Below are positions 15,227 through 39,805 of a stretch of 44,988 nucleotides of DNA, one piece after another. Source of the DNA: a virus; the IMG/VR virus record IMGVR_UViG_3300037193_001860, positions 1 through 44,988 of that record; one strand, given 5' to 3'. Under the pieces are notes generated by a model, which was given only the letters and a program-made list of their open reading frames with translations, had not been told where the DNA came from and ran no database searches. Every line of letters begins with the position of its first letter. Position 1 is the first letter of the stretch. The position numbers and the translations under genes were made by a program.

Positions 15227-15727
15227 GTGGCGCGCCCGGGGCCCGACCCGAACCACCAGATCCGGGCGTTCGAGCTGCTCTCGCAGGGCCGGTCGCTCGC
15301 CGAGGCTCGCGAGATCTTGCGCCGTGAGGGCATCGAGGTCGGCGGCCTGGAGACGGTGCGGCGGTGGGCGCGGGTCGGCGCCCGCGCGGCGTCGTGGTTG
15401 CAGGAGAACAACGAGGCCGCCGAGGAGAACACGACGCACGAGTTCATCCGGCAGAAGTACGCGCACTTCCTCGACAACCTCATCGCCCGTGGCTTCGACG
15501 AGCTGGACAAGGGCGACGGGCTCTACAAGGACATCGCGCCGCTCATGGCCCGGTTCGCGCGTGAGCAGACGCTGGCGCTCGGTGGCTACGCTGCGGCGAA
15601 GGTCGACGTGACCGGCATCGGATCGGCTGCCGAGCTCGACCCCGCTACGCGCGCTGTCGTGGAGGCCATGCAGGCCAAGGCGGCGGCGCGTGATCAGGAG
15701 ATCCTGAACTCAGGAGGTACGGAATGA
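15227..15727 (+). CDS. Small terminase-like DNA-binding protein (packaging module A)
   Basis: 166 residues from GTG 15227 with AAAGGAG upstream. The N-terminal 50 residues form an HTH (AFELLSQGRSLAEAREILRR, then GGLETVRRWARVGARA), followed by long helices (EENTTHEFIRQKYAHFLDNL, a likely coiled-coil oligomerisation region) and a C-terminal tail (ELDPATRAVVEAMQAKAAAR). HTH plus central helical oligomerisation region is the layout of many TerS proteins, and a full TerL gene follows 400 bp downstream. A plain regulator cannot be excluded. Confidence 0.6.
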   Translation: MARPGPDPNHQIRAFELLSQGRSLAEAREILRREGIEVGGLETVRRWARVGARAASWLQENNEAAEENTTHEFIRQKYAHFLDNLIARGFDELDKGDGLYKDIAPLMARFAREQTLALGGYAAAKVDVTGIGSAAELDPATRAVVEAMQAKAAARDQEILNSGGTE

Positions 15728-15945
15728 AGTCGCTCCCCGCCCTGTTCCTCGCCGGCGTGCTCGCGCTCGGCGGCTGGATGCTGCTGCGCCTGTCCGGCCG
15801 CGTCGAGCGCCTGGAGGCCGTGCACGGTCGTGGCTGGTCGGTGCAGTCGCCGCCGATCGCGTGGGAGGACCCCGCCTGGTACGCATCCGACGACTTCGAC
15901 AAGGCGCTCGCGCGGTGGGCGCACGAGATGGGGGACGCGGCATGA
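15724..15945 (+). CDS. Small membrane-anchored protein, 73 aa
   Basis: ATGA-coupled; TCAGGAGGTACGGA precedes the ATG. N-terminal transmembrane or signal-anchor helix (LPALFLAGVLALGGWMLLRL, 4-23) and an outside/inside domain with ...DPAWYASDDFDKALARWAHE. Lies between the two terminase-type genes; function unknown. Confidence 0.7.
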   Translation: MKSLPALFLAGVLALGGWMLLRLSGRVERLEAVHGRGWSVQSPPIAWEDPAWYASDDFDKALARWAHEMGDAA

Positions 15946-16130
15946 AGTTCGGCCGCTGGTACTTGGACTTCAGGCGCTATCGGAGGTCTCGCTACTGGAC
16001 GAGCGGGTTCAGGTCCGGTGGGCGCGCGACGCCGGGGCCGTGGTGGCAGCTCGCCGTCCGCGGCGTCGGCGAGCTCACCCTGTCGCGCGATCGGACACTG
16101 TTCGGTTGGGATGACGAGGCGAATCGATGA
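15942..16130 (+). CDS. Small Arg/Trp-rich protein, 62 aa
   Basis: ATGA-coupled at both ends. Begins MKFGRWYLDFRRYRRSRYWT, resembling the WRYW-rich protein at 7744-7923 in style. Function unknown. Confidence 0.65.
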   Translation: MKFGRWYLDFRRYRRSRYWTSGFRSGGRATPGPWWQLAVRGVGELTLSRDRTLFGWDDEANR

Positions 16131-17662
16131 CCGTCGGCGAGCAGCGGCGGACCGTGCGGCCGCCCGCGTTCCCGCCCGGCGTGGACGGGCACGCGCTCCT
16201 GGAGCCGTGCTACCACTCGGCGTGGCTCCTGCCCGGCCGCGGCCCCGGGGACCGGGGCGGCTCGGACTACCGGCGCGCCATCACCCGGCACGATCCGCTG
16301 CTGTTCGCCGTCACCTACCTGGGCCGCGCACTGCGCGACCAGGACACCGGCCAGATGAGCTTCTCGGACTTCCACCTGGACGCGTTCGAGCTGGCGAAGG
16401 GCTGGCGCTACCGGGAGCCGCAGCGGTCGGCGTGGGTGGCACCTCGCCGCGCCGGGAAGTCGATGCTGTGGTTCCGCGCGAACCCGCTGTGGGCGCTGGC
16501 GCACGGCTGGCGGCGGTTCTTCCTGGCGTTCGCGTACACCGAGGCGCAGGCGAAGGCGCACCTCGGGAACCTGCTCGACGTGCTCTGGCGGCGTGATGCG
16601 CCCGACCACACCGGGCACCGCATGTCCGACCTGCTGCTGAGCGACTTCCCCGAGCTCGCCCCGGTGCGCGGCGCAGGCGGACCGACGCGGACCGTGCTGG
16701 CCAGCGGGGCGACGATCGCCGCCTACGGCATGGGCGCCACACGGCTCGGCGAAATGTCGGGCACCGACCGGCCGGACCTCATCATCGGCGACGACCTCGA
16801 GCCGGGCGAGGCGGACTACGGGCCGAAGGTGAAGGCCAAGGCGGTGTCGCGGCTGCTCCAGAACGTGCTGCCGATGAACGACCGCGCCGCCGTGGTGCTC
16901 ACCGGGACGACCACGGCGCACGGCTCGATGATGCACGATGTCGTGCGGGCGGCGAAGGGCGACCAGCCGGCGCGGTGGCTCGCCGAGGAGCGGATCACGC
17001 CGCACTACTACCCGGCGATCCTGCACGAGGGCACGCCCGCAGCGCGGTCGCTGTGGGAGCAGCGCTGGCCGCTGGAGCAGCTGCTGCGCGACCGCAATAC
17101 GCGCTCGTTCGCGGTGAACATGCTCAACGACCCGCCGGCCGCGGGCGCGGGCCCGTACTGGACGCGCGAGAGCTTCATCTACGGCAACCCGCACGTCGCC
17201 CGCTGGGTGCTGTGGGTGGACCCGGCGCTGTCGACGCACGCGACCTCGGACCACACGGCAATGGTGGTCGCCGGTGCGCTGCCGACGGGCGCGGTGGCCT
17301 GGGTGGCGCACGCGGAGGCGGGCCACTACTCGCCCGCGAAGATCAAGGAGCGAATCCAGGTCATCCGCGACACCTTCCCCGGCCTGCTGGTGTGCGTGGA
17401 GGAGAACGCGACCGGCGAGGAGAACGCCCGGGTGCTCTACGGCCTCGCGCGGCATGACGAGACGCCGCGGGCCGAGGCGCGCAAGGAGCTGCGGATCCGG
17501 GCGGCGGCTGACCTGTACGACGCGGGCATGGTGCGCCACGTCCGGCCGCTGCGACAGCTGGAGGACGTGCTGGTGGAGTACCCGGCGGGGCCGCGCGACG
17601 ACCTGCCCGACGCGCTCGCCGGGGCGCTCGGCCGCGTGCTGCCCGGCCGCGTTCCCAGGTAG
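16127..17662 (+). CDS. Large terminase, copy A (early-region packaging module)
   Basis: 511 residues, within the normal TerL size. ATPase domain: Walker A VAPRRAGKS (about 104-112), Walker B DLIIGDD (217-223), and a coupling motif VVLTGTTT (256-262). Nuclease (RNase H-fold) domain: WVDPALS with D365, VEENATG with E425/E426, and DDLPDALAGAL near 496-506 carrying the third acidic site. All catalytic positions appear intact, so it should be active. It lies in the early rightward operon behind a TerS-like gene, 22 kb away from the second TerL at 38255, to which it shows no obvious similarity outside the motifs. Confidence 0.85.
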   Translation: MTVGEQRRTVRPPAFPPGVDGHALLEPCYHSAWLLPGRGPGDRGGSDYRRAITRHDPLLFAVTYLGRALRDQDTGQMSFSDFHLDAFELAKGWRYREPQRSAWVAPRRAGKSMLWFRANPLWALAHGWRRFFLAFAYTEAQAKAHLGNLLDVLWRRDAPDHTGHRMSDLLLSDFPELAPVRGAGGPTRTVLASGATIAAYGMGATRLGEMSGTDRPDLIIGDDLEPGEADYGPKVKAKAVSRLLQNVLPMNDRAAVVLTGTTTAHGSMMHDVVRAAKGDQPARWLAEERITPHYYPAILHEGTPAARSLWEQRWPLEQLLRDRNTRSFAVNMLNDPPAAGAGPYWTRESFIYGNPHVARWVLWVDPALSTHATSDHTAMVVAGALPTGAVAWVAHAEAGHYSPAKIKERIQVIRDTFPGLLVCVEENATGEENARVLYGLARHDETPRAEARKELRIRAAADLYDAGMVRHVRPLRQLEDVLVEYPAGPRDDLPDALAGALGRVLPGRVPR

Positions 17663-17665
17663 GTC

Positions 17666-17695
17666 TTCCGTAGTGCGTAGCCTACGTGCTACCTT
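17666..17695 (+). promoter_or_regulatory. Palindromic leaderless promoter-operator, copy 3
   Basis: -35 TTCCGT (17666-17671), 18 bp, -10 TACCTT (17690-17695), ATG at 17703 seven bases later. Palindrome GTAGTGCGTAG-C-CTACGTGCTAC at 17670-17692, one mismatch between arms. Starts 3 bases after the terminase stop codon. Confidence 0.75.
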
Positions 17696-17702
17696 CTCCG
17701 GC

Positions 17703-17960
17703 ATGGAGAACACCGGCACCCACCTCGCCTACGTCCTCACCGCCGTGGGCGTGGCTGCTGACGTCGACAACGGCCCCAAGGTCACCGTGACGGAACTTCC
17801 CGAGAACGGCTCGGCCACCGTCGTCGACGTCTACCGACTGGGCGCGTACGCAGCGCTGGGGGACGGGCGCCTGCGCCTGGCCGCCGAGGGGTGGCGCGTG
17901 CTCGGAGACGACGAAGAGCTGTCGACCGGGCACTACCTGCTGCACGTCGAGAAGATCTGA
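17703..17960 (+). CDS. Hypothetical protein from a leaderless mRNA, 85 aa
   Basis: Start fixed by the promoter just upstream. Beta-rich pattern (GPKVTVTELPENGSATVVDV, LRLAAEGWRVL). No family recognised. As it is driven directly by a repressor-controlled promoter, it may act at lysis-lysogeny switching or early takeover. Confidence 0.7.
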   Translation: MENTGTHLAYVLTAVGVAADVDNGPKVTVTELPENGSATVVDVYRLGAYAALGDGRLRLAAEGWRVLGDDEELSTGHYLLHVEKI

Positions 17961-17970
17961 GGGAGCGGAC

Positions 17971-18132
17971 ATGAACGACAGGCAGAAGGCGGACATGCAG
18001 CGCTGGGAGCGCGCCGAGACTGACGGCACGATCACGCCGCAGCAGGCGAAGCTCCTGGCCCACTGGCGCAAGATGGAGAAGATGGAGAAGGCCACCGACG
18101 AGCGCGAGCGGGCCTGGCGCGAGCAGGAGTGA
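17971..18132 (+). CDS. Small charged helical protein, 53 aa
   Basis: ATG 17971 with GAGGGAGC ribosome site. MNDRQKADMQRWERAETDGT, then a helical, Lys/Glu-rich tail (KMEKMEKATDERERAWREQE). Last plus-strand gene before the convergent terminator. Confidence 0.65.
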   Translation: MNDRQKADMQRWERAETDGTITPQQAKLLAHWRKMEKMEKATDERERAWREQE

Positions 18133-18179
18133 CCTCGCTACCCTCGAACTCGCCGTGTGACCGCACGGTGGCGGATGTT

Positions 18180-18206
18180 CGGCCCCCCACCCCCGGTGGG
18201 GGGCCG
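18180..18206. terminator. Bidirectional terminator between convergent operons
   Basis: CGGCCCCCCACC (18180-18191) pairs perfectly with GGTGGGGGGCCG (18195-18206) around a CCC loop. It separates the rightward early operon (stop 18132) from the leftward parA operon (stop 18215), so it can serve both. Confidence 0.8.
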
Positions 18207-18214
18207 TTCCGCAT

Positions 18215-18520
18215 CTACTTCCCCTCGAACCGCTTGCGCAGCGCCTCTCTGATCATCTGCTGCGTCCGCACGTCGGTCAGGAGCAGGCCGACGAGCTCGT
18301 CGAGCACGTACTGACCGGGTACGCGTGGCACGCCGAGCTGGACGGACTCCTCGTCGCACCAGGTGTTGAGCGCGTGGTGGCGAGCGACAGCGAGGTCCAA
18401 GGTGCGGCGGATTGGCTTAGTACGCGCGGTCGGCCGGGTGGCCGGCGCAGGGCGCTCGGGCGGCTGGAACGAAGGCGCGGACAGGCGGGCGGCGAGGTCT
18501 TCCCTCTTGCTGGGGCTCAT
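18215..18520 (-). CDS. Small ParB-like / ribbon-helix-helix partner of ParA
   Basis: 101 residues, ATGA-coupled to parA. The N-terminal 45 residues are disordered and Pro/Arg-rich; the segment KPIRRTLDLAVARHHALNTW starts with a short strand followed by helices, as in ribbon-helix-helix centromere-binding proteins, and the rest (VPGQYVLDELVGLLLTD, MIREALRKRFEGK) is helical. Small RHH proteins after parA are the usual partition adaptors in actinomycete plasmids and ParA-carrying mycobacteriophages. No parS array was proven; the dispersed palindromes are one candidate target. Confidence 0.65.
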   Translation of the reverse strand: MSPSKREDLAARLSAPSFQPPERPAPATRPTARTKPIRRTLDLAVARHHALNTWCDEESVQLGVPRVPGQYVLDELVGLLLTDVRTQQMIREALRKRFEGK

Positions 18521-19137
18521 GCGCTCGCCCCTGTCAGCAGTTCCTCGACGGCGTCGGAGTAGTCGGCGACGTGCTGGCGGCGCAACGGCACGCCCCACGC
18601 CTGTCGGTAGGCCTCGCGGTCGGGGACGATCGGGCGCAGCACTCGCCAGCCGTCGGCTTCGAGGGCGCTGCGGTACACCTCGCCGGACGCCGCGCTGCGC
18701 TTCACCTTCACGAGCAGGACGGCGGTGTGGAACTCGCCGCCGACGCTGGCCTCCTCGAGCAGCTCGTGGACGGGCGTCATGCGCTCGTGCTCGATGGTGG
18801 AGGGGGTGAGCGGCACGATGACGTGGGTCGCCGCGCGGGCCGCGGACTCGACGATGGCCTTGCGGTCGTCGGTGGGCGGGGTGTCGATGACGGTGACGTT
18901 CCAGCGGTCGCCGACGATGCCGGGCAGCTCGCGGTGAATCTTCCCCGACGGCAGGGCGATGACCGGCCAGGGGAAGCCGGCCTGCTCGCTCCAGCGCAGG
19001 AGCGAGCCTTGCGGGTCGGCGTCCACGGCGAGCACGCGGGCGCCGAGCTCGTGTAGCGCCTGGGCGACGTGAGCGGTGGTCGTGGTCTTCCCGGTGCCAC
19101 CCTTCAGGTTGAGCACCGCGATGCGTGTGGTGGGCAC
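18517..19137 (-). CDS. parA: ParA-family partition ATPase
   Basis: 206 residues from GTG 19135-19137. Deviant Walker A KGGTGKTT (12-19 with the signature Lys), VDADPQGSLLRWS (Walker A' region), VTVIDTPPTDD (Walker B), and VPLTPSTIEHERM, all standard for small plasmid ParA proteins. The -10-like TAGCGT at 19146-19151 (minus) lies 8 bases before the start. With the downstream small DNA-binding protein it makes a partition cassette, which implies stable low-copy plasmid maintenance in lysogens. No integrase gene was found in the genome, which fits. Confidence 0.9.
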   Translation of the reverse strand: MPTTRIAVLNLKGGTGKTTTTAHVAQALHELGARVLAVDADPQGSLLRWSEQAGFPWPVIALPSGKIHRELPGIVGDRWNVTVIDTPPTDDRKAIVESAARAATHVIVPLTPSTIEHERMTPVHELLEEASVGGEFHTAVLLVKVKRSAASGEVYRSALEADGWRVLRPIVPDREAYRQAWGVPLRRQHVADYSDAVEELLTGASA

Positions 19138-19204
19138 GGCGCGCGACGCTACCGGAGCTACGTACGTACTGCGACACGTAGGTACGGCGTGTCCGGATCG
19201 AGCG

Positions 19205-19234
19205 TTGCGTAGTACGTAGGCTACCTGCTACCAT
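19205..19234 (+). promoter_or_regulatory. Palindromic leaderless promoter-operator, copy 4
   Basis: -35 TTGCGT (19205-19210), 18 bp, -10 TACCAT (19229-19234), ATG at 19241. Palindrome GTAGTACGTAG-G-CTACCTGCTAC at 19209-19231. It lies 70 bp upstream of parA in the opposite direction, so a protein bound here could also influence partition. Confidence 0.75.
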
Positions 19235-19240
19235 CCAGGC

Positions 19241-19420
19241 ATGACGAACTCGCTCCCCAGCGCCACCGAGACCCGCTACACCTCGTGGGGCGCCGACTCT
19301 GACGCCCGGTGGAACCTCTTCCGCGCCACCGTGCTGAACGGCGCGACCGCCGACAAGGCCGCTGACGTCGCGGGCATCGAGCGCATCCCGGCCGCGCCGA
19401 AGGTCGAGCACGAGTGGTGA
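19241..19420 (+). CDS. Small protein from a leaderless mRNA, 59 aa
   Basis: MTNSLPSATETRYTSWGADS start; C-terminus KVEHEW. The first codons and promoter resemble those of the gene at 8521 (MTQTLPSALTT ... DEDEEW), including the shared 14-mer CGCTCCCCAGCGCC at 19251-19264, suggesting duplication of a promoter-plus-start cassette. The stop overlaps the GTG of the methyltransferase gene. Function unknown. Confidence 0.7.
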   Translation: MTNSLPSATETRYTSWGADSDARWNLFRATVLNGATADKAADVAGIERIPAAPKVEHEW

Positions 19421-20106
19421 GCAAGCCGATCCTGTTCGACATCTGCTGTGGCCTCGGCGGCGCGACAAAGGGCTACCAGCGCGCCGGGTTCTACGTGATC
19501 GGCGTGGACATCGCCCCGCACCCCGACTACTGCGGCGACGAGTTCGTGCAGTCCGACGGTCTGGCGTTCCTCGTGGCGAACGGACGTGACGCCGACGGCA
19601 TCCACACCTCGTGGCCCTGCCAGGCGTCGTCCTCGGCGACGAAGGGCAACCGCAAGCGCGAGGGCTGGACCGACGACCACATCGACCTCAACCCGGCGGG
19701 GCGCGCGCTGCTCGACGCGATCGGCCGCCCGTACGTGATGGAGAACGTCATGAGCTCGGTGCTGCGGCCGGACGTCGTGCTCTGCGGGCTGATGTTCGGG
19801 CTGCGCGTGTTCCGGCACCGCAAGCACGAGCTGGGCGGCTGGTCGATGCCGCAGCCCCCGATGCCGTCCCACCGGGGGCACCGGGTGTCCGGGTGGCGTC
19901 ACGGCGTCAAGTACGAGGGCGACATGCTCGCCGTCTACGGCAACGGCGGCGGCAAGGCCACCGTGGAGGAGTGCCGCGAGGGGCTCGGGATCGACTGGTC
20001 GTGGGACCGTGACCAGCTCGTGGAGGCCGTGCCGCCTGCGTACTACAAGTTCATCGGCCACCACCTGATGGCCGCGCTGCAGCAGGGAGAGGGGCTGGCG
20101 GCATGA
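19417..20106 (+). CDS. C5-cytosine DNA methyltransferase-like protein
   Basis: 229 residues from GTG 19417 (GTG 19414 possible). Motif I FDICCGLGGATKGYQRAGF, motif IV SWPCQASS with catalytic Cys68, motif VI MENV (108-111). The target-recognition part is short and motif X may be the VPPAYYKFIGHHLM segment near the end. Short Dcm-like proteins are frequent in actinophages and may protect the phage from host restriction; activity is likely but specificity unknown. Expressed from operator copy 4. Confidence 0.85.
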   Translation: MSKPILFDICCGLGGATKGYQRAGFYVIGVDIAPHPDYCGDEFVQSDGLAFLVANGRDADGIHTSWPCQASSSATKGNRKREGWTDDHIDLNPAGRALLDAIGRPYVMENVMSSVLRPDVVLCGLMFGLRVFRHRKHELGGWSMPQPPMPSHRGHRVSGWRHGVKYEGDMLAVYGNGGGKATVEECREGLGIDWSWDRDQLVEAVPPAYYKFIGHHLMAALQQGEGLAA

Positions 20107-20282
20107 CCGAGTGTGAACGCGAGTCGGTGACGCCGACCGAGGACGGGCGCCTCATCGTCGACTGTTCGATGCACGGTGAGGTCGGCTCCGTGGCTGGCGG
20201 CGGGCTGGACCGCGTCAGCGTCGGCGAGGGGGCGCGAGTCGACGCGCTCTGGGCGGCGCACGTGCGAGCGAGTCAGTCCTGA
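20103..20282 (+). CDS. Small protein, 59 aa
   Basis: ATGA-coupled to the methyltransferase gene. MTECERESVTPTEDGRLIVD then DCSMHGEVGSV; two Cys and one His may bind metal. Function unknown. Confidence 0.65.
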   Translation: MTECERESVTPTEDGRLIVDCSMHGEVGSVAGGGLDRVSVGEGARVDALWAAHVRASQS

Positions 20283-20333
20283 CGAGCTCCCAACTAAATG
20301 TCAGTTTCGTTGGCTCGACGAAAGGTAGAAGAC

Positions 20334-20543
20334 ATGACGCACACCTGCCCGGGTCCGGGCCCTGGCATCCGCTGCCCAGACGCGGCCGAGCTGGAGCGGC
20401 TACGGGACCGCGTGGCTGGCGCGCTGAACCTGCCGCCGGGGGCGTCCGATGACCGGCTCGTCGCGGCGGCGTTCAACGCCTACGGGGCTGCCCATCCGGA
20501 GGGACCGGGGTCCGACCTGCGCGCCGAGCCGGGTCGTACGTAG
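20334..20543 (+). CDS. Small Pro/Cys-containing protein, 69 aa
   Basis: ATG 20334 with AAAGGT upstream. Starts MTHTCPGPGPGIRCPDAAEL, followed by a helix and an Ala-rich domain (DDRLVAAAFNAYGAAHP). Preceded by an unusually AT-rich stretch (CTAAATGTCAGTTTCGTT, 20293-20310). Function unknown. Confidence 0.6.
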   Translation: MTHTCPGPGPGIRCPDAAELERLRDRVAGALNLPPGASDDRLVAAAFNAYGAAHPEGPGSDLRAEPGRT

Positions 20544-20581
20544 AGACCATGCTCAGCGCCATTTACCTCTGCGGAGGCGAC

Positions 20582-20758
20582 ATGACACCAGGGCCGCGCG
20601 GCACCGACTGCCCTGACCCGTTGCATGATCACCCGCTCCCGCGGGGGTACGTCGATGCAGCCGAGGAGGCGACACGGCGGCTGAACAAGCGCTGGGTGAA
20701 CAGGAAGTGTCCGCAATGCGGCCTGTACGGCTGGGTCCCCGGCACCGATGTCCGATAA
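20582..20758 (+). CDS. Small zinc-ribbon-like protein, 58 aa
   Basis: ATG 20582 chosen for the GCGGAGG ribosome site 5 bases upstream; an upstream ATG (20549) lacks one. RKCPQCGLYGW near the C-terminus is a half zinc ribbon. Function unknown. Confidence 0.6.
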   Translation: MTPGPRGTDCPDPLHDHPLPRGYVDAAEEATRRLNKRWVNRKCPQCGLYGWVPGTDVR

Positions 20759-20872
20759 CGCCTCTTATGTTCGACCGGCGCGAGCCGGTGTAGCACGACG
20801 CCCCGCAAGAGCGACTGATCCCCCGCGGGGTCTGACTCCCCTGCTCCCCACATGCCCCGAGGAGGGCTCTGC
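20759..20872. other. Promoter/leader region of the surface-protein gene
   Basis: Contains ACCGGC-GCGA-GCCGGT (hairpin, about 20776-20791) and a CCCCGC/GCGGGG pair further on. It may be a separate promoter region for the gene at 20873, as expected for a gene expressed in the lysogen, but no clear -35/-10 pair was found. Confidence 0.4.
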
Positions 20873-21370: not shown

Positions 21371-21380
21371 CTCCCGACGC

Positions 21381-21420
21381 CGAAGAGCCCCCACCCGTCA
21401 GCGCGGGTGGGGGCTCTTCG
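21381..21420. terminator. Strong bidirectional terminator (17-bp stem)
   Basis: CGAAGAGCCCCCACCCG (21381-21397) and CGGGTGGGGGCTCTTCG (21404-21420) are perfect inverted repeats with a 6-nt loop. It lies between the convergent plus-strand accessory genes and the minus-strand late operon (last stop at 21497), so it likely ends both. Confidence 0.85.
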
Positions 21421-21496
21421 CGTAGAGCGCTCGGGCCAAGGCCCCAGCCTCCCGGCCACCGCCATCTGGACGGCTCGCCGGGTCGCCCGAGCACGA

Positions 21497-22348: not shown

Positions 22349-22371
22349 GCGTACCTCCGTAGCTACTGACT

Positions 22372-29996: not shown

Positions 29997-31967
29997 CTAT
30001 CCGATCTGGATCTGTCCGGTGCGGACGAGCTTCATGAATGCGGTGGCGAACGCGCTGTCGACGTTGCCGCTGAACCGGACCTCACGAGCGCCGGTACCTG
30101 CGGGGGCGGCCGGCCTGCTCCCGCCCAGTGCGGCACCGGAGAGCGACCCGGACGCGGCGCCCATCAGCTCAGTGCCCGCCCGGCCGACGTCCGGGATCCC
30201 CGCTCGCAGGGACCCGGCGAAGTCCGTCACCAGCGCCTCGCCCGAGCGGTCCACGTACCCGGAGCCTGAGAAGGGCCCCCACTTCGCCGGGCTGAACGGC
30301 CACAGGCCGCGGAACCACGCGAGCTGACCTTGGAACCAGGACACGAGGCCGTCCCACGCTCGGCGCAGGCCGTCGCGGAAGCCGTCGATCAAGGCGCGTC
30401 CGGCGTTGACCAGCAGGCTCCCGATGTTGCCGAGTGCCGACATGAACCGGCCCGGCATCCCGGCTACCCACGTGACCAGCTCGACCGCCTTGCTGATCGC
30501 GGAGTCCTTCATCTCGCCGAACCAGCCGCCGACCAGGCCAGGCAGCTCCCCGAACCAGGCAATCGCACCCTTGATCCACTCGATGGCCGAGCCGATGCCG
30601 GTCTTCACGGCCTCCCAGGCGCCGTTGACGATGTTCCGGAAGGTCTCGCTCTCGTTGTACGCCCAGACCAGACCTGCGACGAGCGCGGCGATCGCGATCA
30701 CGACGAGCCCGATCGGGTTCGCCGACAAGGCGGCGTTGAGCACCCACTGCACGCCGGCCCACGCGATGGTCAGGGCGCGCACCGTGGTCATGATCGAGTT
30801 GTAGAGCGCGACACCGGCGACGATGCCCTTGATCGCCCCCGCGAGCGCGAGCACGCCGATCGCGGCCGGCCCGAGCACGGGCGCCCACTCCGCGAGCGTG
30901 GTGGCGACACCGGCGACGATAGGGGCGAGCGCGGTCACGATGGGGGCGAGCGTCTGTAGCGCGGCGAGGAAGACCTCACGCAGGACCGTCCCGGCGGCGC
31001 GCATCGCCTCGCCGAGCGCGCCGAGCGCCTCCTGCGCGGACGCGGACGCCATGAAGGCGGCCAGCTGGGTGGTGGCGTCGCGCAGCGGCCCGAGGAACGA
31101 CGTGGCGTCGCCGCCCAGGCCGGTGAACACCGAGCTGAGGATCGAGCCGATGTTGCCGACGATCGCGCCGAGGTCGCGGAACCCCTGGATGGCGCCATCG
31201 ATCAGCTCATAGATCCGACCGGACTCGATGCCCTGGTCGACCCAGCCGCGGAACTTCGCGGCCACGTCGCCGATCGCGGTGCCGAGGCCGGACAGGTACT
31301 CAGCGCCCACTCCGCCCAGGCCGACGATCCCGGACAGGGCGTGCGCTGCGGCGAACCGCATGTTGCCCAACATCGCCGCGGTGCCGCTGAGGATCGAGTC
31401 GAGATCGCCCTTGAAGAAGGGGCTCTGTGCCGCGTGCAGCGCCTCGACGCCGATCCCGTTGAACCCCGTGGCGATCTTCGTCATGCCGGTACTCAGGGTC
31501 GGCAAGAGCTTGTTGCCGACCTCGCGCACCTCGTCCGCGAAGCCTGCGAAGAAGGCGCCCTGCACGGACTGCTTCAGCGCGTCGACCTGTGGCTTGAAGC
31601 CGGCGAAGGCCTGCGCGGTCTCCCGCGCGGCGGGGGCCATATTCTTGGTGGCCTCGGCGAAGGCCTCCATGTCGCCGGACAGCCCGGCGGAGATCGCCTC
31701 GGACATGCCGGCCGTGGCGATCTTGAAGGTCTGCATCGCGGCCTGCGCGCCGAGCAGCGCGCCCGGGAGCAGGAGCGCGGCCGGTGCGAGCTGGGTCAGG
31801 GCACCGGCCAGGCCGCCGATCCCCTGGATGGCACCGCCGGCGCCGGCCAGGCCGCCGAGGCTCTTGCCCAGCGTGCCCATCGTTGCAGTGACCTTCTTGG
31901 CCGTGCGGTCCAGTGGGCCGGAGTCGCCGGCGAAGGTCAGGGTGACCGTGGGTCCCTGCCCGGCCAT
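29997..31967 (-). CDS. Tape measure protein
   Basis: 656 residues, long alpha-helical Ala/Gly-rich protein: KKVTATMGTLGKSLGGLAGA start, several hydrophobic helices in the middle (for example about 355-400 and 420-445, IGLVVIAIAALVAGLVWAYN), and a C-terminal globular tail ending MKLVRTGQIQIG. Position after the tail chaperone and gp10-like genes fits. At about 0.15 nm per residue the tail would be near 100 nm, short for a siphovirus. Starts at ATG 31965-31967 (TGATG junction). Confidence 0.85.
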   Translation of the reverse strand: MAGQGPTVTLTFAGDSGPLDRTAKKVTATMGTLGKSLGGLAGAGGAIQGIGGLAGALTQLAPAALLLPGALLGAQAAMQTFKIATAGMSEAISAGLSGDMEAFAEATKNMAPAARETAQAFAGFKPQVDALKQSVQGAFFAGFADEVREVGNKLLPTLSTGMTKIATGFNGIGVEALHAAQSPFFKGDLDSILSGTAAMLGNMRFAAAHALSGIVGLGGVGAEYLSGLGTAIGDVAAKFRGWVDQGIESGRIYELIDGAIQGFRDLGAIVGNIGSILSSVFTGLGGDATSFLGPLRDATTQLAAFMASASAQEALGALGEAMRAAGTVLREVFLAALQTLAPIVTALAPIVAGVATTLAEWAPVLGPAAIGVLALAGAIKGIVAGVALYNSIMTTVRALTIAWAGVQWVLNAALSANPIGLVVIAIAALVAGLVWAYNESETFRNIVNGAWEAVKTGIGSAIEWIKGAIAWFGELPGLVGGWFGEMKDSAISKAVELVTWVAGMPGRFMSALGNIGSLLVNAGRALIDGFRDGLRRAWDGLVSWFQGQLAWFRGLWPFSPAKWGPFSGSGYVDRSGEALVTDFAGSLRAGIPDVGRAGTELMGAASGSLSGAALGGSRPAAPAGTGAREVRFSGNVDSAFATAFMKLVRTGQIQIG

Positions 31968-32398: not shown

Positions 32399-32402
32399 TC
32401 CG

Positions 32403-32892: not shown

Positions 32893-32921
32893 GGGAATGC
32901 TCCTCCCGGGGTTTGCGCTGG

Positions 32922-33739: not shown

Positions 33740-33743
33740 AGGG

Positions 33744-34361
33744 CTACACCGCCCCCCAAACGCGCCGGTACGGGCCGAGAGCGACCGCAACGTCCGGGTC
33801 CAGGCGAGCCTGAAGGCGCACCTCTGACCCGGCGTCCGGCGAGCCAGCAACGCCGTACGGGCTGTCCCGGCGCGCCAGCAGCCGCGAGGCCTGCAACAGC
33901 GTGGCCTCCTTGATCGCGGTCGGGACCGCGGTCCAGCCCCACTGCGCAGTCACCCGCACGCCGTCGGTCAGCGTGGTCGGCTGCACCGTGCTGGCGGGCA
34001 GGATCGCGAGCTCGGTCCACGGGCGTTCCTCGGCGGCGGCGTTCGCCGGCTGGAGCCGGTGGTCCGTGATCGCCGAGCTGTAGGTCTCGTCCTCGTTCTC
34101 GTCGAACGCGACCGACAGCCCGGTACTGGTCATGAGGTCGTCGATCACGACGTACCAGCGGCAGCGCTTGCGGTCCCACTGCGCGGTGTAGAACCGCGGC
34201 GCCGGGGCGGCGAGCAGGCCGAACTGCCTGTTCGAGGCCCGGTCGACCGCGCGGGACGCGGCGGCGATGGCGAGCGCAAGCTGCGCGTCGTCGAGCGAGT
34301 CGTCGATCCGCACGAATGCGGCGAGCTCGTCCGTCGTCGCGTAGTCAGGTCGCCATGCCAT
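33744..34361 (-). CDS. gp6-like head-tail connector, 205 aa
   Basis: MAWRPDYATTDELAAFVRID, then DAQLALAIAAASRAVDRASN, the typical gp6-like/phage connector (DUF3168 neighbourhood) N-terminus, with a helix-rich C-terminus (AIKEATLLQASRLLARRDSP). Follows the 99-aa capsid-associated gene. Expected to form the 12/13-mer adaptor below the portal. Confidence 0.8.
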   Translation of the reverse strand: MAWRPDYATTDELAAFVRIDDSLDDAQLALAIAAASRAVDRASNRQFGLLAAPAPRFYTAQWDRKRCRWYVVIDDLMTSTGLSVAFDENEDETYSSAITDHRLQPANAAAEERPWTELAILPASTVQPTTLTDGVRVTAQWGWTAVPTAIKEATLLQASRLLARRDSPYGVAGSPDAGSEVRLQARLDPDVAVALGPYRRVWGAV

Positions 34362-34376
34362 CGCCGCCGCCCCGCC

Positions 34377-34676
34377 CTACTCAGCCGCTACGGCGACGAC
34401 GATCGGAGTCGTGGTCCCCGCTGCCGGGAGGTCGAACCGGACCCGAAGGAACGCCGCAACGTGCAGGACGCTCGGGCCGGAGTCGACCGGAATGCCCTCG
34501 GACACGGAGGCTCCGAGGGAGTACCAGTTCTCTCCATCGAGAGAACCCTCTGCATGCGCGCCGAACGAGGTCGGCCCGCTGATGACCTGCAGAGTCACTC
34601 GCTGAGGGGCGTCAACCCACAGCGCAGGAGACGCCCCGTCAACGAGCTCACTGGTGAGCTGCGTGTAGAGCCTCAC
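34377..34676 (-). CDS. Capsid-associated protein, 99 aa (decoration-like)
   Basis: GTG 34674-34676 overlaps the capsid stop (GTGA). Beta-rich: RVTLQVISGPTSFGAHAEGS, LDGENWYSLGASVSE, AAFLRVRFDLPAAG, resembling Ig-like/F5-8 type beta-sandwich. Position after the capsid is that of decoration or head-stabilising proteins, but it could also be a connector accessory. Confidence 0.65.
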   Translation of the reverse strand: MRLYTQLTSELVDGASPALWVDAPQRVTLQVISGPTSFGAHAEGSLDGENWYSLGASVSEGIPVDSGPSVLHVAAFLRVRFDLPAAGTTTPIVVAVAAE

Positions 34677-35878
34677 GGCAGGTTGCCGGTCAGCGCCACG
34701 TAGGCGTGCGTGTTCTGCTGGGTGGCGTCCATCCGCGCCCAGGCCGAGTACTCGACCTGCCCGTTGGCGGCCCTCGTCCAGGGGTTGACGATGACCACGA
34801 TGTCGCGGACCCGGCGGATGACGTAGCCCTCGCGCAGGTCGCCGAAGACGCCCCAGTTGATCGTGGCGTCGGCCGGCGTGTAGTTCGGGAACGCCTGGTC
34901 GATCGTGACCGGGTACCCGAGCAGCGTCTCCCCGCCGGGACCGCCGGTGACACCCTCGTTGGTGCCCTTCAGGATCGGACGCCCGTTGGTGTCCTCGATC
35001 CCGCGGATGAGCTGGAGCGTCTGGTCGTTGAACGCCCACCGAGCGGACGTGCGGTACGCCGGGTCCACCGAGTGCACGAACGCGAGCAGGTCGGTGTAGG
35101 TGATCTCGGCGCCAACCGGCTCGATGCCGGTCTTGCCGGTCACGATGCCGAGCGGCTGGCCGGTGCCGGTGCCGGTGACCAGGTGGGTCGCCTGGATGCG
35201 GGCGAGCCGCTGGCCCAGCTTGCTGGCGACCAGGTCTTCCACGTCGAACGCGGAGTCCTGGAGCAGCTCCCAGGAGATCCGCAGCGGGAGGCCGCCTGCG
35301 CCGCCCACCATGTACTTGTAGGCGCCCAACTCTTCCTCGCCGAACGCCAGGTCGGCGCCGCCGGAGAACGTGCCGTGCTCGGCGACGATCTGACCGACGT
35401 TCCCGGTGTCGTCCAGGGTCGGCCAAGGCAGGCGGTTGCCGGTCGACGTGGTGATCTCCTCGACCACGTCCGCGAGGCCGCCGAAGGCCTTCATCCGGTC
35501 GACGAGCTTCTGCCGGAACCCCTCGGGCACGGTGAAGCCGCCGGACGAGTCCGGGCTGACACCCTGCGCGTTGCGCAGCTCCTGCAGATCGGCGTTCTCC
35601 TTGCCGGTGCGCAGGTAGTGGTTGAAGGCCGCCTCGATGGTGTCGCGCTGCGGCTTCGCCTCGACGAACAGCGGCTTGGTGGCCACCTCCTTGCGCTCGG
35701 CGTTGCGCTTGCGCACCGCCTCGGTGCGCTCACGACGCGCCTGCGCCTCAGCGAGGTCCTTCTCCAGCGCCTCGATTCGGCCGTGCTCGTCGTCGGTCAG
35801 GTCGCGACCCTCGGCGTCGTCCACGATCGCCGAGAGGGCGTCGTGGATCTCCTCGACGCTCAGCAGCGTGTCAGTCAC
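34673..35878 (-). CDS. Major capsid protein, HK97 fold
   Basis: 401 residues. N-terminal ~100 residues are a coiled-coil scaffold (delta) domain (EALEKDLAEAQARRERTEAV) removed during maturation, then VSPDSSGGFTVPEGFRQKLV, AYKYMVGGAGGLPLRISWEL and ATHLVTGTGTGQPLGIV, hallmarks of HK97-type phage capsids. Cleavage is expected near the LRNAQGVSPDSSGG segment (about 100). The protease gene is directly upstream (ATGA-type overlap). Confidence 0.92.
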   Translation of the reverse strand: MTDTLLSVEEIHDALSAIVDDAEGRDLTDDEHGRIEALEKDLAEAQARRERTEAVRKRNAERKEVATKPLFVEAKPQRDTIEAAFNHYLRTGKENADLQELRNAQGVSPDSSGGFTVPEGFRQKLVDRMKAFGGLADVVEEITTSTGNRLPWPTLDDTGNVGQIVAEHGTFSGGADLAFGEEELGAYKYMVGGAGGLPLRISWELLQDSAFDVEDLVASKLGQRLARIQATHLVTGTGTGQPLGIVTGKTGIEPVGAEITYTDLLAFVHSVDPAYRTSARWAFNDQTLQLIRGIEDTNGRPILKGTNEGVTGGPGGETLLGYPVTIDQAFPNYTPADATINWGVFGDLREGYVIRRVRDIVVIVNPWTRAANGQVEYSAWARMDATQQNTHAYVALTGNLP

Positions 35879-36621
35879 TTCCTCTTCACCCCTCCCAGGG
35901 CGTTGTGGACGCGCGCTTTCGCGTCGTCCGATCGGTTCTTGCGGGCGAGCACGACCGGATCTGGCGCGTGCTCACGGCCCGGGTACTTGAAGGTGTACGC
36001 AGCGAGGTCGTGCACCTTCGCGGCTGCGGTCGCAGCCGGGGTCACCGCGTCGTCGCCGAGCACCGAGTCAGCCAGGCCGGCCTCGACCGCCTCACGGGCG
36101 CTCAGCCAGGTCTCGGCAGCCATGAGGCTGAGCCAGTGCGCCGCGTCCTTGCCGCCCTTCGCCGCGTAGACGTCGGCGATGGAGTCGCGGGCCAGCTTGT
36201 CGAGCAGGTCGGCCATTTCGCGCATGTCGCCGGCCTGACCCATGACCAGCCCAGACGGGTTGTGGATCATCATCTGAGAGCCGCGGCCCATCTCGATCGT
36301 GTCGCCCGCCATCGCGATCACCGATGCGATCGAGGCAGCGACTCCATCGACCGTGACGTGCACCGTCGCGGGGTGCTCGCGGAGCCGGTTGTAGATCGTC
36401 AGGCCGTCGAACACTGACCCGCCCGGCGAGTTGATCCGCAGGTTCAGCGTCTTCGCCTTCACTGCACTGAGGTCGCGCGTGAAGTCGGCGGCCGTGATGC
36501 CGAAGTAGCCGATCTCGTCGTAGATCTCGACCAAGGCCTCGTCGGAGGCGTCGGTGATCCGGTACCAGTCGTGGCCGCCGCGGATCTGCATCTTGGCGAG
36601 CCCGTTGAACAGCTCGATCAC
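35875..36621 (-). CDS. ClpP-like prohead protease
   Basis: 248 residues, S14/S49-type fold: LRINSPGGSVFDGLTIYNRL, DGVAASIASVIAMAGD with the nucleophile Ser97, and QMMIHNPSG with His120. A conserved acidic residue for the triad lies further on (LARDSIADVYAAKGG region). The C-terminal 50 residues are an Ala-rich/basic tail that probably contacts the scaffold. Standard portal-protease-capsid order. Confidence 0.88.
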   Translation of the reverse strand: MIELFNGLAKMQIRGGHDWYRITDASDEALVEIYDEIGYFGITAADFTRDLSAVKAKTLNLRINSPGGSVFDGLTIYNRLREHPATVHVTVDGVAASIASVIAMAGDTIEMGRGSQMMIHNPSGLVMGQAGDMREMADLLDKLARDSIADVYAAKGGKDAAHWLSLMAAETWLSAREAVEAGLADSVLGDDAVTPAATAAAKVHDLAAYTFKYPGREHAPDPVVLARKNRSDDAKARVHNALGGVKRK

Positions 36622-37832
36622 TCGTCGTCCTCCTCGTCGGGAGCCGCCTCGGGCTCGGATGCGGCCACCGGGGCGGCGCCGGCCGGGGTGCGCAGCTCGT
36701 CGGCACCCGGGATCGGCGGCAGGTTGCGGATGCGTCGCGCCTCGTTCGGGGTGATCAGTCCGCCGTTGACCTGCTCGAGCAGGAGGCCGATCTCGTCCTC
36801 GGGGGACGGCGCGACGAACGCGGTGTAGTCGAACTCGACCTTCAGGGAGCCGCGGACCAGGCGCGACAGGCGCTGCTCAATCCGGGTCGTCCACGGGGTC
36901 AGCGTGTAGCGGGCCAGGCCCCGGTTCTGCTCGTGGATCCCCTGGCCCCAGCTCGTGGACTTCTCCGTGAGGCCGAGCAGGTGCGGAGGCACCCCGTACC
37001 AGCGGCCGATCTCGTCGATCTGGAAGGTGCGCGACCCGAGGAACTGGGCGTCTTCCGGCGACAGCATCCAGGGCGTGAAGGTCAGCTTCCGGTTGATGAC
37101 GACGACCTCGCCGGCGTTCTCCACGCCGGTCATGGCGCGGCGAACGGTCTCCTTGACGACCTTCGCCTCTTCCTCGGTGAGATCCTCGTCGTCCTTCGGG
37201 GTGACCAGGCCGGAGATCATCGAGCCGTTCGTGAACTGCTTGTTTGCTGCTCGGTCTCCGGCCAGGCCGGTCCCGATGGACAGCCGGGCCAGCGCGATCG
37301 GGGAGAGGCCCTTCAGGCCGTCCAGCGAGATTCCGGGGATGTGGGTCAAGGTGAGCGCGTCGAACTCGCGACGGCTGCCGTCGTCGAGCAGCACCGTGTA
37401 GAGGCGCCCGCCCGCAGCCTCGGGGTCGCGCTCGACCGTGACAGCGAGTGGGTGGATCAGGTTCAGCCCGGCGAGTGCGCCCGCGTTGTTGTAGACGTGC
37501 TGCGCGTAGGCGTTGCCGTGCAGCAGCAGGTGCACCGCCGCGAGCTCTTTCCACTCGTACGGCGTGAGGTGGTCCAGGCCAGGGTTGTCCAGGAACGAGC
37601 CGACCCGCTCGCGCGTGTCGTCGGCGTTCGTACGCAGCGTGCGCAGCGGCAGTGCGCCGATCGAGCCGGACACCAGCGACACGGCCCGGAAGAGCGCCGA
37701 CAGGCTCATCGCGGTGTACTCGGTGACCTGCGGGACGAACTGGTCGCCGTACCCGAGCATGGCAGCAACCAGCGGGTCACTCACGGTGACTCGCTGGTTC
37801 GCGGCCCTGCGCCAGGGCGCCCACCAGGGCAT
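36618..37832 (-). CDS. Portal protein
   Basis: 404 residues from ATG 37830-37832 (upstream GTGs are possible). MPWWAPWRRAANQRVTVSDP then AMSLSALFRAVSLVSGSIGA, LHGNAYAQHVYNNAGALAGL, IPGISLDGLKGLSPIALARL and LIGLTEKSTSWGQGIHEQN-type region, all typical of the HK97 portal family. C-terminus is acidic (EPEAAPDEEDDE). First gene of the late minus-strand operon; divergent from the small terminase at 37951. Confidence 0.9.
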   Translation of the reverse strand: MPWWAPWRRAANQRVTVSDPLVAAMLGYGDQFVPQVTEYTAMSLSALFRAVSLVSGSIGALPLRTLRTNADDTRERVGSFLDNPGLDHLTPYEWKELAAVHLLLHGNAYAQHVYNNAGALAGLNLIHPLAVTVERDPEAAGGRLYTVLLDDGSRREFDALTLTHIPGISLDGLKGLSPIALARLSIGTGLAGDRAANKQFTNGSMISGLVTPKDDEDLTEEEAKVVKETVRRAMTGVENAGEVVVINRKLTFTPWMLSPEDAQFLGSRTFQIDEIGRWYGVPPHLLGLTEKSTSWGQGIHEQNRGLARYTLTPWTTRIEQRLSRLVRGSLKVEFDYTAFVAPSPEDEIGLLLEQVNGGLITPNEARRIRNLPPIPGADELRTPAGAAPVAASEPEAAPDEEDDE

Positions 37833-37881
37833 GCCGATCCCGATCCGACGCCGGGAACGAGGGGGAGCGTCCGGCGTCAAG

Positions 37882-37917
37882 GTCAGTATAAGCACATGTA
37901 CTGACATACTGACGTCA
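37882..37917. promoter_or_regulatory. Divergent late promoter / operator region with GTCAGTA repeats
   Basis: Between portal (minus) and small terminase (plus). GTCAGTA (37882-37888) is inverted at TACTGAC (37899-37905) and repeated at 37907-37913. On the minus strand TATACT (37885-37890) is a good -10, giving a 46-nt leader to the portal start; no good -35 is seen, which suggests activator-dependent late expression. No clear plus-strand promoter was found for the terminase genes. Confidence 0.5.
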
Positions 37918-37950
37918 GGCTTGCCGCTCCCCGATCGCCTGGAGGTCTCC

Positions 37951-38253
37951 ATGAGCCTGGTCGAAAGCGTGCGCGCCGGCCTCGCCGAGCTCGAGCCCAT
38001 CGACGTCCGTGACCGCGCCGTCGCAGACCTCGCGCTGCGCTACGCCGAGCACATCGACGACGACGCGGACTGGGCGGACAAGCTGCGCGACCCGCTCGCC
38101 GAGCTCGGGCCCAAGCTGCTCGCCGCGCTGACCGCGCTCGGCATGACGCCCGCGGCGCGCAAGGGCATCGTCGGCGACAAGCCGGACGCTCCGAAGGCGT
38201 CCCCGCTCGACGAGCTGCGCGCCCGGCGCGCGGCGCGAGACGCTGCGGGCTGA
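37951..38253 (+). CDS. Small terminase subunit-like protein (packaging module B)
   Basis: 100 residues from ATG 37951 with CTGGAGG. Helical: MSLVESVRAGLAELEPIDVR, DDDADWADKLRDPLAELGPK, then ...LTALGMTPAARKGIVG and a C-terminal Arg-rich helix. Short P27-like small terminases have this size and C-terminal pattern. The large subunit gene starts one base after its stop. Confidence 0.7.
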   Translation: MSLVESVRAGLAELEPIDVRDRAVADLALRYAEHIDDDADWADKLRDPLAELGPKLLAALTALGMTPAARKGIVGDKPDAPKASPLDELRARRAARDAAG

Positions 38254-38254
38254 C

Positions 38255-39805
38255 GTGGCGGCCGTCGTCGACCTCGCCGAGCCGGAGACGATCCTCGGCA
38301 GCACCCTGCCGCGGCTCTGGACGCCCCCGCTCGTCGCCGGGGAGCCCGGGCCGTGCGGCTGCGGGTGCGCGCTCACGCCGAGCACGAGCTACGGCTTCGA
38401 TGTCGACGACTTCGCCCGCGACGTGCTCGACCAGCCGCTCGACCCGTGGCAACGCTGGCTTGTCATCCACGCAGGCGAGCTGCTGCCCGACGGACGCCCG
38501 CGGTTCCGCCAGCTACTCGTGCTGGTCAGCCGCCAACAGGGCAAGACGCACCTCGGCAAAGTGCTCACCCTGTTCTGGCTGTTCGTCGAACGGCAGAAGC
38601 TCGTGCTCGGCACCTCGACGAACCGGGACACCGCGAAGGAGTCCTGGCGGGCCGCCGTCGACGTGGCCCTGAGCAACGAGTACCTGTCCGCCGAGCTGGC
38701 GGCCAACGGGGTCCGCGCCTCCAACGGCGAGGAGACGCTGGCCACCGCGGCCGGATGCCGCTACCGCATCGCCGCGAGCAACCGGCGCGGCGGGCGTGGC
38801 ATGACGATCAACCGGCTGATCCTCGACGAGCTGCGCGAGCACCGCGACTTCACTGCCTGGGATGCCGCCGTGCCGGCCACGAACGCGGTGCCGGACGCGC
38901 AGGTGTGGGCCATCTCCAATCAGGGCGACGAGGGCGCCGTGGTGCTCGATGCGTTGCGTCTGCCCGCCATCGAGTACATCGAGACCGGCAAGGGCGACCA
39001 GCGCCTCGGGCTGTTCGAGTGGTCCGCGCCCGAGGAGGCCGATCCGACCGACCCCGCAGCGCTCGCCGCGGCGAACCCGAACTACGGGCGGCGCACCGAC
39101 CCGGACGCGCTACGCGGGGCGGCGCTGCGGGCCAAGGCAGCGGGCGGCGAGGAGCTGGCCAGCTTCCGGACCGAGATCTTGTGCCAGCGGGTGCACCTGC
39201 TCAGCCCGGCCATCGACCCGGACGCCTGGATCGCCGCAGGCACCGACTCCCCGGTCGACCTCGCCGAGCATCGCCAGCGGGTCGCACTGTGCGTGGACGT
39301 CAGCCTGGACGGCACGCACGCCACCCTGGCTGCGGCGGCGCAGCTCGAGGACGAGCGCGTGCACGTCGAGATCGTCGCGGCGTGGTCCGGCCCGGACTGC
39401 ACCCGCTCGCTGCGCGCCGAGCTGCCTGCGCTCGTCGAGAAGGTGCGCCCGCGAGCGTTCGGATGGTTCCCCGCCGGCCCGGCCGCCGCGGTCGCCGCCG
39501 ACCTGGCAGAGCGGAAGGGCAACCGGGCGTGGCCGCCTCGGCGAGTGCGCGTGGAGGAGATCCGGTCGGACGTCGCCGCGGTGTGCATGGGGTTCGCGGA
39601 GCACGTCATCTCGAGCCAGATCGTGCATCCTCGCGACAACATGCTGACCGCGCACGTCAACGCGGCCCAGAGGCTGCGCCGTGGCGACGCCTGGATCTTC
39701 ACCAGGCAGGAGGCGGGGGCGATCGACGGCGCGTACGCGGCAGCGGGGGCCGTCCATCTGGCCCGGACGCTCCCGCCTCCGCCGCCGCCACTGAGCGCGC
39801 TGTAA
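38255..39805 (+). CDS. terL: Large terminase, copy B (structural-module packaging ATPase)
   Basis: 516 residues, GTG 38255. ATPase domain: DPWQRWLV adenine-motif region (63-70), Walker A VSRQQGKT (91-98), GTSTNRDTAKESW (119-131), Walker B RLILDE (187-192). Nuclease domain: LCVDVSLDGTH with D348, then further acidic residues; C-terminal part VRVEEIRSDVAAVCMGFAEH. This is the HK97/Terminase_1-type family usually next to the portal, and its place here fits, but it is transcribed away from the portal. It differs from copy A at 16127, which has the PRRAGKS/IIGDD type motifs. Confidence 0.88.
   Translation: MAAVVDLAEPETILGSTLPRLWTPPLVAGEPGPCGCGCALTPSTSYGFDVDDFARDVLDQPLDPWQRWLVIHAGELLPDGRPRFRQLLVLVSRQQGKTHLGKVLTLFWLFVERQKLVLGTSTNRDTAKESWRAAVDVALSNEYLSAELAANGVRASNGEETLATAAGCRYRIAASNRRGGRGMTINRLILDELREHRDFTAWDAAVPATNAVPDAQVWAISNQGDEGAVVLDALRLPAIEYIETGKGDQRLGLFEWSAPEEADPTDPAALAAANPNYGRRTDPDALRGAALRAKAAGGEELASFRTEILCQRVHLLSPAIDPDAWIAAGTDSPVDLAEHRQRVALCVDVSLDGTHATLAAAAQLEDERVHVEIVAAWSGPDCTRSLRAELPALVEKVRPRAFGWFPAGPAAAVAADLAERKGNRAWPPRRVRVEEIRSDVAAVCMGFAEHVISSQIVHPRDNMLTAHVNAAQRLRRGDAWIFTRQEAGAIDGAYAAAGAVHLARTLPPPPPPLSAL

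What the first reader, a model, noticed from the sequence alone, without database searches (positions are those of the whole stretch)
15227..39805. Two complete large terminases, each with its own small-subunit candidate
Seen: the gene at 16127-17662 (511 aa; Walker A PRRAGKS, Walker B LIIGDD, nuclease D365, E425/426 and DDLPDAL) and the gene at 38255-39805 (516 aa; Walker A SRQQGKT, Walker B LILDE, nuclease D348) both look like intact TerL proteins of different families, and each follows a small HTH/helical gene (15227-15727 and 37951-38253). Known: tailed phages have one TerL; satellites may carry their own TerS. Inference: one phage may carry two packaging machines with different DNA recognition, or one module came from a satellite-like element or serves another DNA-translocation or processing task such as plasmid resolution. 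Copy A is in the early region, copy B in the late region, so they may act at different times.
Basis: partly seen in the sequence, partly recalled or inferred. Interest (0 to 1): 0.9.

Follow-up and report, generated by a model that had tools for sequence, protein, structure and literature searches.

The report
Phage with a second, early-module terminase
This circularly closed phage genome carries two unrelated, apparently intact DNA-packaging motors; the extra one sits among the DNA-replication genes, far from any portal gene, and belongs to a lineage found here only in phages that already have a normal packaging motor, which suggests a packaging enzyme that has taken on another job.

Summary
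The window is a circularly closed phage assembly (141-bp terminal repeat) with two intact large terminases (TerL) of different families. TerL B (38255-39805, phrog_9, HK97-like) and its TerS lie at the head of the structural module, divergent from the portal gene. TerL A (16127-17662, phrog_38) and a divergent TerS lie in the early DNA-metabolism region, with no portal of their own.

It is not a chimera or a one-off. I found eight more uncultivated phages (two of them also closed) with a complete late TerL (phrog_9 or phrog_2) and a TerL A-type copy; seven of the eight have it outside the structural operon. The nine extra copies form one clade (98/96 support), apart from 40 dereplicated relatives, nearly all of which sit directly before a portal gene. 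The ninth phage was found through its recombination exonuclease, not its TerL. ATPase and nuclease residues are kept almost throughout; the C-terminal tail that ends in an aromatic residue in 32 of 40 ordinary relatives is absent.

Best reading: a terminase holoenzyme moved out of packaging to cut or translocate intracellular DNA during replication. The conservation is shown; the function is inferred. No described equivalent was found in the papers or phage genomes searched.

The parts
16127..17662 (+). TerL A: second large terminase, phrog_38 family, early-module clade
   Evidence: phrog_38 E 1.5e-45; catalytic columns invariant; fold of TerL; clade of nine
15227..15727 (+). TerS A: divergent small terminase subunit candidate, HTH-like
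   Evidence: profile of ordinary TerS genes finds it, E 1.8e-4; hhalign E 2e-7, probability 94%; homologue directly upstream of TerL A in G053, E about 1e-6
15724..15945 (+). 73-aa single-helix membrane protein between TerS A and TerL A
   Evidence: sequence, hydropathy
14788..15102 (+). small two-helix membrane protein just upstream of TerS A; possible counterpart of a family found near TerS A in four other dual phages
   Evidence: hydropathy; weak profile match E 0.0075, 0.22 with a larger profile
15120..15165 (.). inverted repeat (15-bp arms, 16-bp spacer) between the membrane-protein gene and TerS A; possible operator or TerS site
   Evidence: function not tested
38255..39805 (+). TerL B: late/structural-module large terminase, phrog_9, HK97-like
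   Evidence: phrog_9 E 1.9e-70; 6z6d E 2e-18 by sequence and 1.6e-22 by fold
37951..38253 (+). TerS B: small terminase subunit paired with TerL B
   Evidence: PF23931 E 4.7e-13
36618..38000 (-). portal protein (longest ORF; true start probably near 37860), the only portal found
   Evidence: phrog_12 E 1.8e-83, PF04860 E 1.4e-70; no second portal
35875..36621 (-). head maturation protease
   Evidence: phrog_2976 E 2.1e-82
34673..35878 (-). major capsid protein
   Evidence: phrog_10 E 6.9e-63
29997..31967 (-). tape-measure-like protein
   Evidence: homologues in the structural modules of G001, G002 and six dual phages
6353..7747 (+). early-module exonuclease
   Evidence: phrog_466 E 1.8e-41; homologues in four other dual phages and in G129
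9134..11029 (+). early-module DNA helicase
   Evidence: phrog_16 E 6.4e-90; 45% identical in G050
12051..12509 (+). RusA-like Holliday junction resolvase
   Evidence: phrog_244 E 2.8e-19
18517..19137 (-). ParA-like ATPase downstream of TerL A
   Evidence: phrog_164 E 7.7e-34
1..2114 (-). primase/helicase-like protein; the gene runs across the joined ends (continues at 44652-44963)
   Evidence: phrog_906, phrog_6012; overlap
44848..44988 (.). 141-bp exact terminal direct repeat of 1-141 (circular closure)

Best explanation
The phage encodes two terminase holoenzymes. TerS B and TerL B package the genome through the portal. TerS A and TerL A form a second enzyme that descends from a portal-linked packaging terminase, was moved once into the early/replication region of an ancestor, and has been kept in an otherwise mosaic group of phages whose late modules differ. 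I think TerS A brings TerL A to a DNA site and TerL A, with intact ATPase and nuclease but no partner portal, cuts and probably translocates along intracellular DNA during replication or recombination (phage replicative DNA most likely, host or competitor DNA possibly). Shown: two intact TerLs, nine phages with the arrangement, one clade, conserved catalytic residues, no portal of the cognate family beside or elsewhere, no aromatic-ended C-terminal tail. Inferred: early expression, the TerS A-TerL A partnership, and the non-packaging role.
For: TerL A is phrog_38 and TerL B phrog_9. Eight other phages carry both kinds: G050, G053, G085, G083 (closed), G110 and G084 (closed) with phrog_2 late TerLs, G114, and G129, found through its exonuclease. 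TerL A is the only protein family shared by all eight dual genomes clustered. The nine copies form one side of a branch, 98/96, in all of 200 bootstrap trees. Ordinary relatives nearly all lie directly before a portal gene. No cognate portal elsewhere in the dual genomes. TerS-like genes on the same strand upstream of TerL A in eight of nine, all but G114. Catalytic residues conserved. C-terminal tail after D495 is 12-19 residues in eight of nine against 24-40 in 40 dereplicated relatives (27 in G129); none of the nine has a tail of 20 or more ending in an aromatic, 32 of 40 relatives do. In lambda, loss of the last five TerL codons abolishes prohead binding (PMC4856287); for T3 see the title cited in PMC2366019. 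Between G083 and G110 the TerL A core is 74% identical but the late TerL 56%, so TerL A is not drifting.
Against: No transcription or biochemical data; 'early' rests on position and strand. C-terminal tails vary, and a short tail need not abolish portal docking (G129's tail is long). Three contigs with a related exonuclease and a phrog_9 TerL lack TerL A, so it is dispensable for that module, though the contigs may be incomplete. In G084 the TerL A copy lies within the structural region. TerS A of the window is only a weak match, and none was detected in G114. In G129 a Walker A glycine aligns as alanine.
Confidence: 0.5

Rival explanations
1. Both enzymes package DNA: TerS A/TerL A docks on the same portal and packages at a different site or time.
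For: TerL A keeps the ATPase and nuclease residues of packaging enzymes and a TerS; its nearest relatives are packaging TerLs.
Against: No cognate portal in any dual genome; portal families differ among the dual phages while TerL A stays; the usual aromatic-ended C-terminal tail is missing in all nine.
Confidence: 0.23
2. TerS A/TerL A is a remnant: an ancestor swapped its late module for one with a different TerL and the old terminase pair was left behind.
For: Late modules differ strongly among the dual phages while the TerL A clade is shared; gene swapping is common in phages.
Against: Intact open frames with conserved catalytic residues in nine deeply diverged phages; TerL A is better conserved than the late TerL between G083 and G110; the position near the end of the early operon recurs in several of them.
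Confidence: 0.13
3. TerS A/TerL A is a weapon or decoy against competing phages or satellites with a related terminase: it cuts their packaging sites or poisons their motors without packaging them.
For: Named relatives include the satellites MiniFlayer and Mulchroom, which carry their own TerL; loss of the tail with intact catalysis would fit a dominant-negative or cut-only enzyme.
Against: No direct evidence; identity to the satellite TerLs is only 32-35%; a pure decoy would not need intact catalysis.
Confidence: 0.1
4. Assembly chimera, or a recent satellite insertion.
For: TerL A has no portal of its own nearby.
Against: Closed circle with a 141-bp overlap, uniform GC, the same arrangement in eight other contigs including two closed genomes.
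Confidence: 0.02

Closest known systems
phrog_38-type packaging terminases of Microbacterium phage Isperia, Streptomyces phages Yara and KimJongPhill
   Same: Homologous TerL (31-35% identity), same catalytic residues, TerS upstream; in Isperia also a small ORF between TerS and TerL
   Different: There the TerL is followed by portal and head genes; in the window it is a second TerL in the early region, with a short C-terminal tail and no portal
Satellite phages MiniFlayer and Mulchroom (Streptomyces; PMC10690885)
   Same: Encode a related TerS and TerL of their own
   Different: Satellites carry matching portal, scaffold and capsid genes and need a helper; here TerS A/TerL A stands alone inside a full phage genome that has its own late terminase
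HK97-like (phrog_9) late terminases of actinobacteriophages, e.g. Arthrobacter phage Savage2526, Gordonia phage Gsput1
   Same: TerL B: same family and role at the head of the structural module
   Different: TerL B is divergent from the portal gene, and its clade has F/Y at the second acidic position of the nuclease
Reported 'two large terminase' phages (Enterococcus vB_EfS_SE, PMC11510935; Parabacteroides PDS1, PMC10773633; Xanthomonas XaC1/XbC2, PMC11273794)
   Same: Two genes annotated as large terminase
   Different: vB_EfS_SE: probably divided by a homing endonuclease gene; PDS1: the two domains of one TerL split into two ORFs; XaC1/XbC2: two homologues in tandem. None is described as two complete, unlinked TerLs of different families

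Membership tests
Terminase large subunit (TerL A) | Profile match over the whole protein to a TerL family | tested here: met
   phrog_38 E 1.5e-45, residues 54-503
Terminase large subunit (TerL A) | P-loop ATPase with Walker A/B and coupling motif plus RNase H-like nuclease with acidic triad | tested here: met
   R107, G110, K111, D222, D223, E225, T261, D365, E425, D492 conserved in the eight dual copies compared and in nearly all of 121 relatives; fold of TerL
Packaging terminase (function, TerL A) | Gene linked to a cognate portal | tested here: not met
   portal is 20 kb away and of another module; no cognate-family portal in the window
Packaging terminase (function, TerL A) | C-terminal tail with the aromatic end seen in portal-linked relatives | tested here: not met
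   tail of 16 residues against 24-40 in 40 relatives; importance for docking taken from lambda and T3
Packaging terminase (function, TerL A) | Packages DNA in vivo | not testable with these tools
   no experiment possible
Terminase small subunit (TerS A) | Homology to TerS of the same TerL family | tested here: inconclusive
   E 1.8e-4 with TerS profile, hhalign probability 94%; clearer for G050, G083, G085 and G110
Terminase large subunit (TerL B) | Profile and fold of HK97-like TerL, linked to TerS, portal, protease and capsid | tested here: met
Terminase large subunit (TerL B) | Complete acidic triad in the nuclease | tested here: inconclusive
   D348 and D491 kept; second acidic position is F405 in the window and F/Y in its clade
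Capsid-forming phage satellite | Own capsid and portal with terminase, no tail genes | tested here: not met
   the genome has capsid and a tape-measure-like gene; TerS A/TerL A has no portal or capsid partner

The most novel reading that the evidence does not exclude
A clade of complete TerS/TerL pairs has left packaging and become an early, portal-independent DNA-cutting and translocating enzyme of phage replication or of inter-phage conflict, the first terminase lineage maintained alongside an unrelated packaging terminase in the same phage.
Probability: 0.5. Interest if true: 0.86.

Novelty: new variant of a known kind. Interest (0 to 1): 0.74.

Why it matters
One large terminase per tailed phage is taken for granted: TerL is used as a phylogenetic marker and as a predictor of packaging mode. 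A conserved lineage of second terminases in the replication region would break that rule, could mislead marker-based trees and packaging predictions, and would show a packaging motor put to use away from the capsid. It also gives a direct test of which parts of a terminase are needed for portal docking and which for DNA cutting.

Tried and rejected
Single-sequence scans with TerL A of viral and bacterial contigs found no close relative; profile scans were needed. TerL B relatives (46 contigs of 15 kb or more) hold no TerL A, so TerL A is not tied to that structural lineage. I considered that TerL A supplies a nuclease that TerL B lacks (F/Y at the second acidic position): rejected as a general explanation, because TerL B's clade is widespread without TerL A and the late TerLs of G050, G053 and G085 keep an acidic residue there. 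G060 (135 kb, both TerL types) was set aside as probably two prophages in one contig. Integrase: none in the eight dual genomes; ParA only in the window. PADLOC and NCBIfam gave nothing for TerL A or TerS A that passes a cut-off. dN/dS by NG86 (0.45-0.49 for the TerL A core; late TerLs 0.19 and 0.81) is unreliable at this GC and divergence. Promoter and terminator scans near TerL A found nothing. The two-helix membrane protein family upstream of TerS A is convincing in four dual phages and absent upstream of the ordinary relatives, but only weak in the window.

Full report
What is there. The window is a circularly closed phage assembly: the first and last 141 bases are identical and a primase-like gene runs across the junction. 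GC is even at about 71% and no tRNA gene is found. Structural genes (portal, protease, capsid, tape measure, tail) run leftwards from 38 kb to 21.5 kb; exonuclease, helicase and RusA-like resolvase run rightwards from 6 to 12.5 kb.

Two terminases. TerL A (16127-17662) matches phrog_38 terminase large subunit (E 1.5e-45) and TerL B (38255-39805) phrog_9 (E 1.9e-70). AlphaFold models match solved terminases across ATPase and nuclease domains: TerL B best to HK97 (6z6d), TerL A best to the PhiV-1 terminase (8dgc) and T4 gp17. TerS B is a Pfam terminase small subunit (E 4.7e-13). TerS A has no library hit, but a profile built from the TerS genes of ordinary relatives finds it (E 1.8e-4; hhalign E 2e-7, 94%) and it resembles the gene directly upstream of TerL A in G053. 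Two corrections: a 73-aa membrane-protein ORF separates TerS A and TerL A, and TerS B/TerL B are divergent from the portal, as in two relatives.

TerL B belongs to the structural module. Two IMG/VR relatives share TerL B (64% and 59%), portal, capsid, head-tail and tail genes. None of 46 longer contigs with a TerL B relative holds a TerL A.

TerL A belongs to a family whose members normally sit beside a portal. Named relatives at 31-35% identity are the single packaging TerLs of Isperia, Yara, KimJongPhill and others, and of the satellites MiniFlayer and Mulchroom. Of 80 IMG/VR relatives, about 70 have a detectable portal just downstream, and nearly all of 52 further loci do. The exceptions led to the finding.

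Eight more phages with two TerLs. G050, G053 and G085 have a phrog_9 late TerL in addition to the TerL A copy; G083, closed by a 127-bp repeat, has a phrog_2 late TerL next to its portal; G110 and G084 (closed, 127-bp repeat) have phrog_2 late TerLs; G114 has a phrog_9 late TerL. As an independent check I searched with the recombination exonuclease instead: of four new contigs one, G129, has both a TerL A copy and a phrog_9 TerL, while three have only the late TerL. In eight of nine phages the copy lies outside the portal-capsid-tail operon; for the seven of these clustered first it is on the opposite strand to that operon, usually near the point where early and late genes converge. In G129 it lies directly before the primase gene. 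In G084 it lies within the structural region. TerL A is the only family common to all eight genomes clustered; the replication genes recur in five and the late modules differ.

One clade. Trees put the TerL A copies together: five of five at 100/99, eight of eight at 96/93, and nine of nine, including the independently found G129, at 98/96 and in all of 200 bootstrap trees. An eight-copy tree that also held two very distant bacterial rows had one of them, on an extreme branch, inside the group; they were left out afterwards. Branches are long, so the order inside the group is uncertain.

What is kept and what is lost. Walker A, Walker B, coupling motif and nuclease residues are conserved in the dual copies as in 121 relatives, apart from an alanine at one Walker A glycine in G129 and a valine at T263 in two copies. 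The C-terminal tail after D495 is 12-19 residues in eight of nine copies (27 in G129) against 24-40 in 40 dereplicated relatives; 32 of those relatives end in an aromatic residue within the last four, and none of the nine copies has such a tail. Because the copies share ancestry, this is probably one or few events, not nine. In lambda, removing the last five residues of TerL abolishes prohead binding (PMC4856287); [quoted passage not shown] No portal of the cognate family was found elsewhere in the dual genomes, apart from weak similarity of the G050 and G085 late portals themselves. Between G083 and G110 the TerL A core is 74% identical and the late TerL 56%, which argues against a decaying remnant.

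Mechanism. I infer that TerS A directs TerL A to a DNA site and that TerL A cuts and perhaps translocates along intracellular DNA during replication or recombination. Steps shown: gene content, clade, conserved catalysis, absence of portal and tail. Steps inferred: early timing, TerS A-TerL A partnership, substrate and role. Rivals are a second packaging enzyme, a remnant, and a weapon or decoy against related phages or satellites.

Known or new. Paper searches found 'two large terminase' reports that are a probable homing-endonuclease division (PMC11510935, which calls two large subunits atypical), a split into two domains (PMC10773633) or a tandem pair (PMC11273794) (PMC11512304, adjacent ORFs). 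None describes two complete, unlinked TerLs of different families. No phage record in the INPHARED collection has a close relative of the early-module clade (at most 35% identity). The library holds only open papers, so an earlier description elsewhere cannot be excluded.

Noticed in passing
window 38255-39805, residues 403-409; loci: TerL B's clade has GW[FY]P[AST]GP, an aromatic where other phrog_9 late TerLs compared keep an acidic residue in the nuclease; the motif recurs in a large IMG/VR clade (the search patterns favour it), so its nuclease may be altered.
   Followed up: partly
window 37951-39805 against 36618-38000; G001, G002: TerS B/TerL B are transcribed divergently from the portal-capsid operon, an unusual layout kept in two relatives.
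   Followed up: partly
window 14788-15102; G050 33810-34103, G083 11894-12196, G085 36123-36464, G110 30739-31053: A small two-helix membrane protein family lies just upstream of TerS A in four dual phages and was not found upstream of ordinary relatives; the window has a weak candidate at the same place.
   Followed up: partly
window 15120-15165: Inverted repeat with 15-bp arms in the non-coding gap before TerS A; possible operator or TerS binding site.
   Followed up: no
window 18517-19137: ParA-like ATPase downstream of TerL A with no integrase in the genome; possible plasmid-like prophage state.
   Followed up: partly
window 41086-42192 and 19414-20106: A DNA methyltransferase (N6/N4 type) and a weak cytosine-methyltransferase-like gene, perhaps anti-restriction.
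   Followed up: no
loci L099-L176: Many TerL B-type contigs are 15-19 kb long, several from isolate genomes; could be short prophages, satellites or fragments.
   Followed up: no
G060 (IMG/VR contig of L031, 135 kb): Carries a portal-linked phrog_38 TerL and a phrog_2 TerL with an internal TGA, about 57 kb apart; probably two prophages.
   Followed up: no
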